Virus record (IMG/VR): IMGVR_UViG_3300031251_000106
Location: 1 to 23,373 of that record
Source of the DNA: a virus
Strand: one strand, 5' to 3'
DNA: 23,373 nucleotides
The notes under the pieces are model-generated. The model made no database searches. It saw nothing but the letters and a program-made list of their open reading frames with translations, and was not told where the DNA came from. The position numbers were made by a program, and so were the translations under genes. Position 1 is the stretch's first letter, and the number at the start of each line of letters is the position of its first letter. Positions 4,231-22,520 of the stretch are shown piece by piece.

Positions 4231-4782
4231 TCAGTTCTCCTCTGTGTCCTTGAAACCGGGGAGCGCGATGGTCTGTCCCTCGGCGGTGGTGTACTTGAAT
4301 TCACGCTCGACGGGGACCGCGCGCTGCGGCGCGTTGTTCCCGACGAACATGTTAATGGCGTCGGTGTCGGTCAGGTGCTTCTCGAATTCCGAGCGCGCCT
4401 GAGTATTGCCCTTCATCTTGTCCAGAATCCTGGTCTCGTTCTGGCCCAGGTCCGTGAGCAGGGGCACGAGGAAACCGCGCACCTTCGCCAGCTCGATCGG
4501 GTTCAGGCCACCACCCAAGAATAGCTGGTCGGCCAGCGCGGCGCGGACGTTCACGTAGCCCTGCCGCGTGCCCTCCAGGACGCCCTGGTCGTACCCGTGC
4601 TGCACGCGCTCGTACTTCTCCACGACCTTCAGGTATTCACCCGCGAGTGCGTCCTTGGACTTGTTAACCTCGTCCAGAACGTACTCAGCGAACCGGCGCT
4701 TCTTGTCGACGTACAGCACGACGACAATCAGGCCGATGAACGCCGCTGCGGCAACCGCCGCGAGAATGATGGTGGTAACCAC
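4231..4782 (-). CDS. Membrane-anchored protein with coiled-coil domain
   Basis: 183 residues. Residues ~3-25 form one strong hydrophobic helix (AAVAAAAFIGLIVVVLYV) followed by DKKRR, typical of a single N-terminal anchor with the rest in the cytoplasm. Residues ~33-70 are helical and charged. The C-terminal half has no motif I know. The start is GTG at 4780-4782, 4 bases after AGGAGG. Position in the operon after the holin-like and Cys-rich genes hints at envelope or lysis work, but this is an inference only. Confidence 0.7.
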   Translation of the reverse strand: MVTTIILAAVAAAAFIGLIVVVLYVDKKRRFAEYVLDEVNKSKDALAGEYLKVVEKYERVQHGYDQGVLEGTRQGYVNVRAALADQLFLGGGLNPIELAKVRGFLVPLLTDLGQNETRILDKMKGNTQARSEFEKHLTDTDAINMFVGNNAPQRAVPVEREFKYTTAEGQTIALPGFKDTEEN

Positions 4783-12652: not shown

Positions 12653-14542
12653 TTAGTCCTCGTGCAGCGCGAGCGCGACCAGGGACGCGTCGTCGTCCGT
12701 AAGGACCCGCTGGAGGGCCTTAGGGGCATTCATCTTCCGGAGGTACTCCCCGGAAAGCTCGTGCTCCTTGAACCAGCCCTGAACGTCGACCTTGAACAGA
12801 CGCTCGTCGGCCTGCGGGATCTGCGCGGGAAGGGGAGTCAGTCCGAGCGGAGTGACCAGCGCGTGAGTCTTTCCGGTGACCCGCTCATAGACCCACTTGA
12901 GAACGTGCGCGTTCTGCGTGAATCCTGGCCAGAGGAATTCGCCGTCCTCCTGGCGGAACCAGTTCACCCGGTAGATAACCGGGAGGTTCGACTCCCCGAT
13001 GATGGTCTCCATGTCCAGCCAGTGCTGCCAGTAGTCAGCGACGTTGTAGCCGATGAAGGGCTTCATCGCCATCGGGTCCCGGCGAAGCTCCCCGACCGTG
13101 CCCTCAGCCGCAGCGGTCTGCTCGGACGCGATGGTCGCGCCCATGTAGACGCCGTGGGCCCAGGACTTTGATTCGGTCACCAGGGGGACCAGAGAGGGCC
13201 TACGCCCGCCGAACAAGATAGCCGAGATAGGAACACCCTCCGGAGCGTTTGAGTACTCCTGGGCCAGGCTGGGGGCGTTACGGGTGGGGCTGGTGAACCG
13301 GCTGTTCGGGTGCGCCGCCTTTACCGGCGTGATGTCTGCGTCCATAAGGACGTAGGACTTCTTCGCCGCGCGCCAGTAGATGTCCCGGCCCTGCCAGTCG
13401 ACCAGGTGCGCGGGGTGCGGGCCGTCTATGCCCTCCCACCAGACGTCCCCGTCGTCAGTCAATGCGACGTTCGTGAAGATGGTGTCCTTCTCCATCGCGC
13501 GCATTGCATTCGGGTTCGTCTTGTAGTTCGTCCCGGGGGCGACTCCGAAGAATCCGAATTCCGGGTTAATGCCGTAGAGCTGTCCGTCCGCGCCGGGCTT
13601 CATCCAGGCGATGTCGTCCCCGATGGTCTCGAACTTCCACCCGGGAAGGTCGGCCGGAGTCTCTATCATGGCTAGGTTCGTCTTGCCGCAGGCCGAAGGA
13701 AATGCCCCGGCGACGTAGATCGGCTCCGGCTGGGTCCATTCGGTCAGCAGGCCGTCAGGGCTGTCAATGCCCTTTACCGGCGGCGGGGTGACCTTGAGGA
13801 TCATCATGTGCTCGGCCATCCAGCCGTTATCCCGGGCCTGGACGGACGCGATCCTCAGCGCGTAGCACTTCTTGCCGAGAAGGGCGTTCCCGCCATAGCC
13901 AGAGCCGTAGGACCAGATCTCGCGCGTCTCCGGGAAGTGCACGATGTACTTGTCCTCGTTGCACGGCCACGGGATATCCGGCCTGCGGTCAGTCCAGATA
14001 TCACGCAACGGGTAGCCGACGCTGTGCACGGCCGGTACGAACTCCCCGTCGTTACCGAGCACGTCAAGCGCGCCCTGGCCCACACGGGTCATGACGTGCA
14101 TGGAGAGGGCGACGTACGCCGAGTCGGTAAGCTCCACGCCGACCTGGCTGATCGGGCCGCCGACCGGGCCCATGCTGAACGGTACGACGTACATTGTCCG
14201 GCCGCGCATCGATCCCTCGAACCGGTCACGCAAGATCTCGCGCATCTCGTCCGGGTCGTGCCAGTTATTCGTCGGCCCGGCGTCCTTCTCTTCCTTCGAG
14301 CAGATGAAGGTCCGGGACTCGACGCGGGCGACGTCCTTGGGGTCGCTCCGGGCGAGGTAGCTGTTCGGGCGCAGACGCTGGTTCAACGGCTGAAGTGTAC
14401 CGGCGGCAGTAAGCGTCTTGATAAGCCGCTGGTACTCGGCGTCGCTGCCGTCCAGCCAGAGAACCTGATCGGGCTGCGTCAGTTTTGCGACGTTGTAGAC
14501 CCAGGTAATGAGCTTGTTGTTATACGTGGTCGGTGCGAACAT
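12653..14542 (-). CDS. pckG: Phosphoenolpyruvate carboxykinase (GTP)
   Basis: 629 residues, slightly longer than cellular GTP-PEPCKs (about 600-620). It catalyses oxaloacetate + GTP to PEP + CO2 + GDP in the cytoplasm. All main motifs are intact: [14 protein letters not shown] (113-126), GNALLGKK with the metal-binding Lys (218-225), AEHM with the metal-binding His245, the P-loop PSACGKTN (282-289, Lys287, Thr288, and Cys285 as in animal and bacterial enzymes), GDDIAW with Asp310, GVAPGTN (333-339), FGGRRP (444-449) and the lid loop SEQTAAAEG (473-481). The ATG lies 8 bases after AGGAGG and overlaps the stop of the membrane-protein gene. No frameshift or missing catalytic residue is seen, so it should be active. 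Actinobacteria use this GTP form, so host acquisition is likely. The identity is firm; the biological role is an inference. Confidence 0.97.
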
Positions 14543-14757
14543 CAGGCATTCCTCCTACGCTCGTAAATCTTCTTAACGCCGGGGACGTAAATCAGGACCA
14601 GGAAGCTCAGAAGTACCCCAAGGAACAGCACGGGCTGGGCCAGGAAGGGCCAGTGCGCGACGTACGGGAACAGGAAGTGGGCGTACAGCCTGTCGACGGG
14701 GTAGACGAGCGCGATGACGAGCGCAAGCTCAAGTCCGCGCGGCATGGTCTTCTTCAT
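14542..14757 (-). CDS. Two-helix small membrane protein, leader of the PEPCK operon
   Basis: 71 residues from the ATG at 14755-14757 (MKKTMPRG), which has AGGAGG with 6-base spacing; an ATG 6 bases further out directly abuts that ribosome site and is less likely. Helices at about 8-30 and 37-60 are hydrophobic with basic ends ([13 protein letters not shown]), so both termini are likely cytoplasmic. The stop overlaps the PEPCK ATG. It is the first gene after the promoter at 14802-14830. Transport, membrane anchoring of PEPCK or a lysis role are all possible and none is shown. Confidence 0.7.
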
Positions 14758-14801
14758 GAGCATCCTCCTAGATGTCCGGGCTTCTATGACGTTGCAGCCT
14801 C

Positions 14802-17136: not shown

Positions 17137-17502
17137 TCAGTCCTCGTAGAAACGTAGTTGGGCCTCAAGCGCCTGAATGCGCTCCTTCATGGCGAGGTAA
17201 TCGTCCTCTGGCTGGATTACCCAGCGCGTTGGCACCCCGAAGAACTTGTCGGTTCGGAAGAACTCGATCCCGAAGATCACATTGCGCCCGTCCATCAGGG
17301 CGTGTCGCCAGGCAGTACAGAGATCCGCCAGGGTCAGCCGGTAGCCGGTGTTCGACGTCCCCTTGAATTCGATGCTCTCGGTATCGGTTCGGACGTCGTT
17401 CTTGCGAATGTCACCGGCCCCGGACTGGCTGTTCACCGTCCCGCCGTAGCGCTTCGCCCCGTCGCGTTCCTGCTTCCTGCTCCGGCGAATTCGCGCGTCC
17501 AT
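17137..17502 (-). CDS. PD-(D/E)XK nuclease, Holliday-junction-resolvase-like
   Basis: 121 residues from the ATG at 17500-17502, which overlaps the Ntn-hydrolase stop; the longer reading from 17559 would run into that gene. KQERDGAKRYGGTVN, SGAGDIRKNDV (Asp before a strand), IEFKGT (Glu and Lys of the catalytic ExK) and LADLCTAWRHA follow the order of small archaeal-type resolvases and related phage endonucleases. Members cut four-way junctions or process ends, using Mg2+. A long C-terminal helix (about 102-120) may aid dimer formation. Co-transcribed with recA and the Cas4-like exonuclease, so a role in recombination is likely. Specific substrate unknown. Confidence 0.65.
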   Translation of the reverse strand: MDARIRRSRKQERDGAKRYGGTVNSQSGAGDIRKNDVRTDTESIEFKGTSNTGYRLTLADLCTAWRHALMDGRNVIFGIEFFRTDKFFGVPTRWVIQPEDDYLAMKERIQALEAQLRFYED

Positions 17503-18068
17503 CAGATGCCCAGGAGATCGAACGGGCCCTTGACGGCGAAGGTCACGCGCTCGGCGCAATCCATCGCTACCGAAAGCTGATGGTGGATCGCGAGCTTCGG
17601 CTGAGCTATGCGCAGCGCGTGCATTGCACCCATGAATGCCGTCTTGCCGAATCCGATGGCGTCGAACGGGTCAGTAGACTCCATGACCGCGTAGTCACCC
17701 TGGATGACGTAGAGGTGGCCGCGAATTCCGACCATGATATTGCCGGGGGGAGCGGCCTCTTCACCAGTCTCGTTGAACCCGTTCTTGGTGAGAAGCTCGC
17801 GGACCTCCGGGACGAACTCCTCGACCATGTAGCCCATGGGGTCCCCGTTTGAAAGGCCCAGGTCCGTGAGGAAGGGTGGCTCTAGCTGGTACCGGAGTAC
17901 CTGCAGCATCCTGAAAGACTCGCTACCGCCGATAAGGAACTCGCCGTTCTGGAATACCTTCGGCTGCTTGATCACGTCCGCGATCAGTTCCTCCGGCGAA
18001 AGGGCGGCACGGTCTCCGGAAAGCCATACGTGCCCGTCTGATGTGACGGCTCCTGCGATGAGCGTCAT
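17502..18068 (-). CDS. Proteasome-beta / HslV-like Ntn hydrolase
   Basis: 188 residues. After Met removal the N-terminus is Thr (TLIAGAVTSDGHVWLSGDRA), as needed for an N-terminal nucleophile. Asp19 in SGDRA and Lys37 in QPKVF are at the spacings of HslV Asp17 and Lys33, followed by LIGGSESF like the HslV GFAGG strand. AIGFGKTAFMGAMHAL near residue 140 matches the HslV AIGSGG helix. These enzymes are barrel-shaped peptidases usually gated by an ATPase (HslU, Mpa/ARC). No ATPase is in the window, so it may work alone or dock onto a host ATPase. Its ATG overlaps the recA stop (ATGA). The fold is well supported; the cellular role is not known. Confidence 0.75.
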   Translation of the reverse strand: MTLIAGAVTSDGHVWLSGDRAALSPEELIADVIKQPKVFQNGEFLIGGSESFRMLQVLRYQLEPPFLTDLGLSNGDPMGYMVEEFVPEVRELLTKNGFNETGEEAAPPGNIMVGIRGHLYVIQGDYAVMESTDPFDAIGFGKTAFMGAMHALRIAQPKLAIHHQLSVAMDCAERVTFAVKGPFDLLGI

Positions 18069-20412: not shown

Positions 20413-22335
20413 CTATTTGGCAGCCGCCCAACGGTCAACGATTTTACAGTCAACGTTCAAGGGTACCTTGACGCGATCCTGCATTCCCCCGCCAGTCATG
20501 GACCAGATAACTATCTGCCGGACCTTCTCGGCCAGGTGCTCCGGGCACATGATGACCATTTCATCGTGCACCGTCAGGCTAAGCCGGGCTTCAGGTACAT
20601 GCTTTTTCAGGGCCCAGTAGACACGGATCAGGGAGAGCTTCATAAGCTCAGCCGCGCCACCCTGGATCATGGTGTTGAACAGTTGCCGCTCATTGTACCC
20701 ACGCGTCCCGTAGTCGTCTGAGAACAGCCCGCGCAGCCTGCGCTTCCGGCCGAGAATAGGAGTCCGGATGTAAGGGACGCCGGAGACAGACATCGCCTGC
20801 CTGATCAGCTTGACCTTGAGCCGCTCGGTCTCGGGGAACTCGGTGTCGTAGTCCGCCTGGATCTTCTTAGCTTCCTTGCCCGAGACACCGGCCGTCTCCG
20901 CGATCGTCTTCCATCCCGCGCCGTTTACGATCGTGAAGCCTAGGGTCTTGCCGTACTTCTGGCGCTCGGCCGGGGTAATGCCACCGTCCTTGCCACCGTC
21001 CTTAGTGATGAACGGCTTCTTGTGCAAGACACCGGCCGCGTGTGCGATGTGGGGGTCGACGCCGTGCATGAACCCGTCGTAAAGCTTGCCCTTGCCTAGC
21101 ATGTGGGCCAGGATCACAAGCTCAATCTGCCCGTAGTCGGAGACCACGAGCTTCCACCCGGGCAGGGAGTCGAACGCGCCACGGATAAGCTTGCCGTACG
21201 GCTTGTCGGGGCGCGGGATGTTCTGGAGGTTCGGCGCGCGTCCGCTGAACCGGCCGGTGACCGTGCCGTGCTGCTGAAATTCGGTGTAAAGGTAGCCGTC
21301 GACAATCAGGCAGGGCTTCTTTGGATTCCCCGGCTCGCCCAGCCACGAATTGATGTAGGTGCTGAGGAGCTTGTGCGTGTCAGCATAGGCTAGCAGGGCC
21401 TTGCACACCGGGTTGCCCGGGTAGCTCGCCAGGACGTCCGCGTCCGTCGACCATCCGCCGCTGTCCGTCTGCTTCCACGGCTTGAGGGCCTGTCCTCCTT
21501 CTTCCTTCGGGCCGAACAGGATCTTCTGCTTCTGCGGTGGTGAGTTCAGGTTGAATTCCTGACCGGCCGTGCGGTAGCAGTCCGCCTCCTGGATTACCAT
21601 GCGCTCGCCCATTTCCTTCTGGGTGCTCAGAAGGCTGGGGACGTCCATGTGGGCACCGTTAAGGCGCATGTCTGTCAGTACCGGGATAAGGTCTACGTCG
21701 ACCTGGTGGGCCTCTGTGAGCCCCTCACGGGCTATCTTCGGGTGCTTCTGCAGCCAGAGCAGCCAGGTGTACAGCGCGTCCATGTAGCTGTAGTGCGCGA
21801 CCTTATTGAACGGGTGAATCTCGACGCACTTACCCACGTTCTCATGGTCGTACTCCACGCCGAACGTCCGCTTGGTCCAGGCCTTGAGTCCGTTGTCCTT
21901 CTGCGCGGTGTTCTCGTCCAGCAGCCGCATGATGACCTTGGTGTCATCGAACGGGCCCGGCATGATCTCGCCGTCGAAGTACTTTGTCATCGAGCCGACG
22001 TCGAACGTCGCCTCGTGGCAGATCTTAGTGATCTTCGGGTTAAAGAACAGCGGCTTCAGGATAGCCACTGCCTCACCGATGGAAAGCTGGGGGGGTGGGT
22101 CGTCATAAACGGGAACGGAGAAGAACCTGATCTTGCCGTTCTTATCGGCGCGCGGTTCCTTTGTTGTCCCTATGACCTTGCTGCCGAGCGGGTGCCCGAA
22201 GGGAATGACCACCGTCATGCCGTGCGTCGCCATGCTGAGCCAGGTCACGGTGTTCAGCGCCGGGACCCCCCGGTGCGCGCCCACGGTCTCCACGTCGAAC
22301 GCAAAGGCGGGTTGCTTCTGGAAATGCCTGACCAC
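20413..22335 (-). CDS. polA: Family A DNA polymerase with 3'-5' exonuclease
   Basis: 640 residues from GTG at 22333-22335. Exonuclease: DVET (Asp14, Glu16), ATFDVGS (Asp112) and HYSYMD (Tyr182, Asp186) are the ExoI-III motifs. Polymerase: TVTGRFSGRAPNLQNIP (358-374), motif A SDYGQIEL (Asp400), motif B with Lys463, Phe467 and Asn471, motif C TVHDEM (His590, Asp591). There is no 5'-3' nuclease domain, as usual for phage replicative enzymes. Motif A has Val407 where most have Arg, and motif B has Asn471 where most have Tyr. The start is unclear: GTG 22335 lacks a ribosome site and sits in a 13-bp hairpin, while AGGAGG at 22382-22387 points to an in-frame ATT at 22375-22377. Confidence 0.93.
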   Translation of the reverse strand: MVRHFQKQPAFAFDVETVGAHRGVPALNTVTWLSMATHGMTVVIPFGHPLGSKVIGTTKEPRADKNGKIRFFSVPVYDDPPPQLSIGEAVAILKPLFFNPKITKICHEATFDVGSMTKYFDGEIMPGPFDDTKVIMRLLDENTAQKDNGLKAWTKRTFGVEYDHENVGKCVEIHPFNKVAHYSYMDALYTWLLWLQKHPKIAREGLTEAHQVDVDLIPVLTDMRLNGAHMDVPSLLSTQKEMGERMVIQEADCYRTAGQEFNLNSPPQKQKILFGPKEEGGQALKPWKQTDSGGWSTDADVLASYPGNPVCKALLAYADTHKLLSTYINSWLGEPGNPKKPCLIVDGYLYTEFQQHGTVTGRFSGRAPNLQNIPRPDKPYGKLIRGAFDSLPGWKLVVSDYGQIELVILAHMLGKGKLYDGFMHGVDPHIAHAAGVLHKKPFITKDGGKDGGITPAERQKYGKTLGFTIVNGAGWKTIAETAGVSGKEAKKIQADYDTEFPETERLKVKLIRQAMSVSGVPYIRTPILGRKRRLRGLFSDDYGTRGYNERQLFNTMIQGGAAELMKLSLIRVYWALKKHVPEARLSLTVHDEMVIMCPEHLAEKVRQIVIWSMTGGGMQDRVKVPLNVDCKIVDRWAAAK

Positions 22336-22359
22336 CGAGCGAAGATGCTCGGTGGTCAG
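22328..22359 (-). promoter_or_regulatory. Perfect 13-bp hairpin over the polymerase gene start
   Basis: CTGACCACCGAGC (minus strand) pairs with GCTCGGTGGTCAG around a 6-base loop. No T-run follows, so it is not a terminator. It covers the in-frame GTG start codon 22333-22335 and lies about 22 bases after the AGGAGG site. It could be a translational operator of the polymerase mRNA, by analogy with the T4 gp43 autoregulatory hairpin. This is an inference. Confidence 0.45.
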
Positions 22360-22385
22360 TACAATGTTCCCGGTAATGGCTCCTC

Positions 22386-22520
22386 CTAGCCTGTCCGGCG
22401 ATGGAATTCCGCTGTTGCGAGTTCCACGGCCTCTTCGTCGTTCTCGGCTTCGACCGTGATCTCACGGGCCACCTGGCCTCCGTCAGGGGCCCGCTCGAAG
22501 TAGGGGAATGTGTACTCCAT
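22386..22520 (-). CDS. Small acidic protein, 44 aa
   Basis: MEYTFPYFERAPDGGQVARE then ITVEAENDEEAVELATAEF and a basic HRRTG end. The ATG overlaps the upstream stop by one base. Its stop TAG is fused to the AGGAGG that serves the polymerase. It has a beta-hairpin/helix layout seen in many small phage proteins. Function unknown. Confidence 0.6.
   Translation of the reverse strand: MEYTFPYFERAPDGGQVAREITVEAENDEEAVELATAEFHRRTG

What the first reader, a model, noticed from the sequence alone, without database searches (positions are those of the whole stretch)
22328..22387. Perfect hairpin and missing standard start at the DNA polymerase gene
The strong AGGAGG at 22382-22387 is followed by an in-frame ATT rather than ATG/GTG/TTG, and the next in-frame GTG (22335) lies inside a 13-bp inverted repeat. 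The hairpin could repress translation (like T4 gp43) and/or start codon choice may be non-standard.
Basis: partly seen in the sequence, partly recalled or inferred. Interest (0 to 1): 0.65.

Follow-up and report, generated by a model that had tools for sequence, protein, structure and literature searches.

The report
Phage polymerase: ATT start, conserved hairpin
In an uncultured phage related to Streptomyces phages, the DNA polymerase gene has ATT instead of ATG behind a perfect ribosome-binding site and carries, at the downstream edge of an initiating ribosome, a hairpin kept in four related phage lineages, which most likely works as a 'starting block' that helps the ribosome begin on a weak start.

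Summary
In detail: AGGAGG (22387-22382), in-frame ATT (22377-22375), and a perfect 13-bp stem with a 6-nt loop (22359-22328, minus strand), the only such hairpin in the window. ATT is very probably the real start. Its spacing from AGGAGG (4 nt) is the one this phage uses before ATG/GTG elsewhere. A sister phage (89% identical protein) has ATG at exactly that place, and ATT recurs in two further assemblies of the same population. The inner GTG has no Shine-Dalgarno and would remove conserved residues. The hairpin lies inside the gene, about +19 to +50 from the start, beyond the ribosome footprint. It is present at the same place in a 100/99-supported clade of four polymerase lineages (52-100% identity), is improbable under synonymous recoding in each (p about 0.0005-0.004), and is absent from nearly all other relatives. 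It does not cover the Shine-Dalgarno, so a T4 gp43-type operator is not supported. The best reading is an activating coding-region stem-loop ('START'/fepA type) helping weak initiation signals: AUU with a strong Shine-Dalgarno here, AUG without one in the sister. Activation versus repression is not shown. New variant of a known kind.

The parts
20413..22377 (-). DNA polymerase family A gene with 3'-5' exonuclease domain, 654 codons if started at ATT
   Evidence: Pfam DNA_pol_A 6.8e-75 and DNA_pol_A_exo1 1e-10; homologous over residues 1-654 to L002 (89%)
22375..22377 (-). ATT, probable start codon
   Evidence: in frame; 4 nt after AGGAGG as in other genes of the phage; aligned with ATG of L002; same in L001 and L003
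22382..22387 (-). Shine-Dalgarno AGGAGG
   Evidence: sequence; the same TAGGAGGA-nnn-start arrangement precedes recA (ATG 19180) and gene 4231-4782 (GTG)
22378..22391 (-). Weak predicted mini-hairpin GGCU-AGGAGG-AGCC that shows the Shine-Dalgarno in its loop, ending next to ATT
   Evidence: in the MFE and centroid structures; 4 bp only, conservation not testable in L002, which lacks these bases; inference
22347..22359 (-). 5' arm of the stem, CTGACCACCGAGC (+19 to +31 from ATT)
   Evidence: pairing kept in L002 and nearly all in L017
22341..22346 (-). hexaloop ATCTTC
   Evidence: ACCTTC in L002, ATCTCC in L017
22328..22340 (-). 3' arm of the stem, GCTCGGTGGTCAG (+38 to +50); contains the first in-frame canonical start-like codon, GTG 22335-22333
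22386..22520 (-). upstream 44-codon ORF, stop TAG overlapping the Shine-Dalgarno; its counterpart in L002 ends in ATGA overlapping the polymerase ATG
   Evidence: sequence; L002 alignment and frames

Best explanation
The polymerase is translated from the AUU at 22377, placed by the strong AGGAGG. A stable 13-bp stem-loop in the first codons, whose foot lies at about +15 to +19 from the start, is a conserved mRNA element. Like the activating coding-region stem-loops of fepA and bamA ('starting block', START mechanism), it most likely stops the 30S subunit with the start codon in the P site and so raises initiation on an otherwise weak site. Shown by computation: start position, hairpin, conservation in a clade. 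Inferred: that the RNA forms in the cell, that the net effect is activation, and that AUU makes the gene sensitive to initiation factor 3.
For: Start: spacing of AGGAGG to ATT equals that before the phage's recA ATG and another gene's GTG; L002 has ATG at the same column; ATT in three assemblies differing by 1-2 SNPs in 5.9 kb, none near the start; the GTG alternative would drop E10, L12 and R13, which are invariant among five relatives. Hairpin: the same place in four lineages that form a 100/99 clade. Synonymous recoding with each gene's own codon use gives p 0.0016 (window), 0.003 (L002), 0.0005 (L017), 0.0036 (L015). L002 keeps 13/13 pairs through 3 double-sided and 2 wobble changes. Window and L017, at 52% protein identity, share 8/8 stem codons (3.7 expected, P 0.0018) and differ only in the loop codon. 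Position: outermost pair about +15 to +20 from the probable start in all four (counting from GTG in L015 and L017), which matches the 15-17 nt covered by the ribosome and the START window +16 to +65 (PMC7664666) and the fepA stem-loop near +20 (PMC12692685). Weak initiation signals elsewhere in the clade: L002 has ATG without a Shine-Dalgarno (ATGA overlap), L017 has GTG right after TAG, L015 has no clear Shine-Dalgarno.
Against: No expression data. The amino-acid motif (T/D)-(T/P)-(E/D)-H-L-R-x-V-V is itself nearly palindromic in GC-rich codons, so part of the stem is free. Given L002's amino acids, resampling only its changed codons keeps 13 pairs in 3.8% of trials, and for L017 12 pairs in 21%: the covariation is modest. 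In L015 the stem is in a shifted register, so it is conserved in place, not pair by pair. The start codon of L015 is uncertain (ATG at -15 or GTG at -3). A stem this strong could hinder as well as help.
Confidence: 0.5

Rival explanations
1. Repressor site: the polymerase itself or another phage protein binds the hairpin and blocks initiation or early elongation (autogenous control in the manner of T4 gp43).
For: Phage replication genes are known to be controlled this way (PMC3014915); a hairpin conserved at a polymerase start fits; loop letters are similar in three lineages.
Against: Hairpin is downstream of the start and leaves the Shine-Dalgarno free; the loop letters encode conserved H-L-R, so their conservation needs no protein; L015 has another loop (GCGCA) and register.
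Confidence: 0.2
2. By-product of the protein: a helix-start motif whose GC-rich codons happen to be self-complementary, with no function at RNA level.
For: D-D-L-H-E-V-V in L094 and D-D-L-H-Q-V-V in L089 also give 9- and 8-bp stems with z near 0; E10, L12, R13 and V16 are conserved in the protein.
Against: In the clade the fold is far below synonymous recodings; relatives with similar peptides (VILTPDRLNTVVERF, TVLTPEHLHSVVDYF) fold with z +0.3 to +1.5; stem codons are identical between window and L017 at 52% protein identity.
Confidence: 0.15
3. Holding device for translational coupling: the stem keeps ribosomes that finish the upstream small gene near the restart site.
For: Upstream stop overlaps or abuts the polymerase start in L002 (ATGA), L017 (TAG-GTG) and L073 (GTGA), and lies 9 nt upstream of ATT in the window.
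Against: Gene overlaps are common in this phage (e.g. starts 5351, 6149, 14542) while no other such hairpin exists in the window; the window has a full Shine-Dalgarno and so needs coupling less.
Confidence: 0.1
4. DNA-level or processing element: protein-binding palindrome, RNase III site or transcription signal inside the gene.
For: Perfect 13-bp inverted repeat.
Against: No T-tract and no terminator match, no Rfam family; two G-U pairs in L002 keep an RNA stem but break a DNA palindrome; place is fixed relative to the start codon.
Confidence: 0.05

Closest known systems
Activating coding-region stem-loops of E. coli fepA and bamA (Jagodnik et al. 2017, read through PMC12692685 and PMC7769764); START mechanism (PMC7664666)
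   Same: Stem-loop inside the coding sequence, foot at about +15 to +20 from the start, beyond the ribosome footprint, leaving the Shine-Dalgarno free
   Different: Phage replication gene, a stem of 13 bp, weak or non-AUG start; activation and small-RNA control not tested here
Genes with an AUU start: E. coli infC and pcnB; S. aureus cvfC1 (PMC13009471)
   Same: AUU where a canonical start would stand, behind a strong Shine-Dalgarno (as reported for cvfC1)
   Different: A phage DNA polymerase; the closest relative uses AUG; IF3 sensitivity unknown
Streptomyces sigR with a GTC start repressed by IF3 (PMC5472188)
   Same: Non-canonical start after an AGGAGG-type site in a GC-rich genome; limited translation plausible
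   Different: Other codon and gene; no stem-loop noted in the passages read
T4/RB69 gp43 translational operator (PMC3014915)
   Same: Hairpin near the start of a phage DNA polymerase gene
   Different: Upstream with sequence overlapping the ribosome-binding site there, downstream inside the gene here; other polymerase family; other loop

Membership tests
START / coding-region activating stem-loop | Stable stem-loop with its foot just beyond the ribosome footprint (about +16 to +20) | tested here: met
   13-bp stem +19 to +50; outermost pair +15 to +20 in four lineages
START / coding-region activating stem-loop | Selection on the structure beyond the protein | tested here: met
   Synonymous-recoding p 0.0005-0.0036 in four lineages, clade 100/99; covariation modest
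START / coding-region activating stem-loop | Opening the stem lowers initiation | not testable with these tools
   needs reporters or toeprinting
AUU-start gene | No ATG/GTG/TTG at the Shine-Dalgarno-defined start position; AUU at usual spacing | tested here: met
AUU-start gene | Relative uses a canonical start at the same place | tested here: met
   L002 ATG
AUU-start gene | N-terminal peptide or start complex at AUU; IF3 repression | not testable with these tools
   needs mass spectrometry, ribosome profiling or IF3 mutants
T4 gp43-type operator | Hairpin upstream of the start, operator overlapping the ribosome-binding site | tested here: not met
   hairpin is +19 to +50, Shine-Dalgarno not in it; definition from PMC3014915
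T4 gp43-type operator | Conserved UAAC-like loop | tested here: not met
   loops AUCUUC, ACCUUC, AUCUCC, GCGCA
T4 gp43-type operator | Polymerase binds the RNA | not testable with these tools
   binding assay needed
Intrinsic terminator | U-tract after the stem | tested here: not met

The most novel reading that the evidence does not exclude
AUU start plus stem-loop form one switch: the polymerase gene is kept low by host initiation factor 3 at its AUU and is raised when the stem-loop-assisted start complex wins, for example when infection changes the ratio of factor to ribosomes, so that the onset of replication is timed by the state of the host's ribosomes.
Probability: 0.1. Interest if true: 0.75.

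Novelty: new variant of a known kind. Interest (0 to 1): 0.5.

Why it matters
AUG-to-AUU start changes are very rare (1 in 61,358 ancestral AUG starts reconstructed in PMC5622118), and a gene caller limited to ATG/GTG/TTG would start this polymerase 14 codons late, at a GTG inside the hairpin. If the stem-loop is an activator, it extends the coding-region 'starting block' from a few enterobacterial genes to a phage replication gene. It would also give a natural series (AUU with Shine-Dalgarno, AUG without, GUG) in which to measure how a downstream hairpin makes up for weak start signals.

Tried and rejected
Sequencing error: rejected as unlikely, ATT in three assemblies that differ by SNPs elsewhere. 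GTG 22335 as start: no Shine-Dalgarno, removes conserved residues, inside the stem. In-frame start upstream: none of ATG/GTG/TTG. Terminator and known RNA families: none. Hairpin as a general trait of these polymerases: rejected; of 59 representatives only the four-member clade shows it consistently, with L073 as a separate strong case (z -4.3, GTG start) and weaker folds in L058 and L088. Streptomyces phage relatives (BRock, LuckySocke, GiJojo, pSt2308, Alone3) have a normal ATG and no such stem. Frameshift or readthrough role: the upstream gene is in a different frame in the window and the same frame in L017, so no common scheme. More close sisters were sought in genome contigs, viral contigs and by DNA pattern: none.

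Full report
1. Observation. On the minus strand the polymerase gene begins ...GGCT AGGAGG AGCC ATT ACC GGG AAC ATT GTA CTGACCACCGAGC ATCTTC GCTCGGTGGTCAG GCATTTCC. It is the only non-overlapping inverted repeat of its kind found in the window; a Markov model expects 0.017 stems of 12 bp or more per window; the RNA fold is 6.3 standard deviations below shuffles.

2. The gene. It is a family A DNA polymerase with a 3'-5' exonuclease domain, close to a recA gene. The nearest named relatives are Streptomyces phages such as BRock and LuckySocke (about 41% identity). Near relatives in viral contigs: L001 and L003 (same population, 1-2 SNPs in about 5.9 kb), L002 = L013 (89%), L015/L016 (53%), L017 (52%).

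3. The start. L002 has ATG exactly where the window has ATT, followed by the shared ACCGGGAACATTGT. The window has nine extra bases in the alignment that supply the Shine-Dalgarno; L002 has none and joins the upstream gene through an ATGA overlap. A spacing of 4 nt from AGGAGG is this phage's habit: recA TAGGAGGACTT-ATG, gene 4231-4782 TAGGAGGACTC-GTG, polymerase TAGGAGGAGCC-ATT. Of the 36 starts listed there this is the only one without ATG/GTG/TTG (the other 35 were picked as ORFs with such starts, so this only shows how the polymerase differs, not how common ATT is). The alternative GTG has no Shine-Dalgarno and would remove residues E10, L12 and R13, which are invariant among five relatives. 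ATT is therefore very probably the start codon; that it is used is inferred, not shown. A strong Shine-Dalgarno beside a weak start is a known compensatory pattern (PMC5622118; sigR, PMC5472188; cvfC1 AUU, PMC13009471).

4. The hairpin. Comparable stems stand at the same place in L002 (14 bp, two G-U), L017 (12 perfect bp plus four beyond a bulge) and L015/L016 (12 bp in a register shifted by a few bases). These lineages form a clade with 100/99 support; of 59 representatives nearly all others lack the stem. Against recodings that keep the protein and the gene's codon use, the folds are at p 0.0016, 0.003, 0.0005 and 0.0036. Between window and L002 five of 13 pairs changed and all still pair, three by changes on both sides. 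Between window and L017, whose proteins are only 52% identical, all eight comparable stem codons are identical (3.7 expected, P 0.0018) while the loop codon differs. The four p-values are not independent, because the peptide is shared and window and L002 are close. The covariation test alone is modest: shuffles reach the covariation score in 3 of 500, and resampling the changed codons gives P 0.038 for L002 and 0.21 for L017. The peptide is itself prone to self-complementarity; this is the main weakness.

5. Mechanism. The outermost pair lies at about +15 to +20 from the probable start in all four lineages, the edge of the initiating ribosome (15-17 nt, PMC7664666). The same place is occupied by the fepA stem-loop, which raises initiation as a 'starting block' (PMC12692685; PMC7769764). 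The Shine-Dalgarno is not in the hairpin; it is predicted in the loop of a weak 4-bp hairpin of its own. Members of the clade have in common a hairpin and a start lacking one usual signal: AUU, no Shine-Dalgarno, or GUG next to a stop. I therefore think activation most likely (0.5), repression by a bound protein next (0.2), and a by-product of the peptide third (0.15). The direction of the effect was not tested.

6. Known or new. Each part is of a known kind: an AUU start (infC, pcnB, cvfC1) and a START-type coding-region stem-loop (fepA, bamA). The pairing of the two in a phage DNA polymerase was not found in the papers searched; that library lacks most subscription journals. It is not a T4 gp43-type operator by position or loop, nor by polymerase family.

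Noticed in passing
window 12653-14542 (-): A complete GTP-dependent phosphoenolpyruvate carboxykinase (both Pfam domains, E 1.9e-134 and 6.8e-99) in a phage genome. Only 3 of 50,697 phage records match it by tblastn, but it is present in the sister contigs of L002 (112 kb) and L003.
   Followed up: partly
window 17502-18068 (-): Protein matching PHROG 'peptidase HslV family' (1.3e-10), just downstream of recA.
   Followed up: no
window 22378-22391 (-): The AGGAGG is exactly the loop of a predicted 4-bp hairpin GGCU-AGGAGG-AGCC that ends next to ATT.
   Followed up: no
L073 1498-1560: A distant polymerase (43%) with a GTG start has an even stronger stem at the same place (z -4.3 to -4.9), apparently arisen independently.
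   Followed up: partly
window 14542-14763 (-): ORF whose AGGAGG directly abuts its ATG (zero spacing), so this start is doubtful.
   Followed up: no
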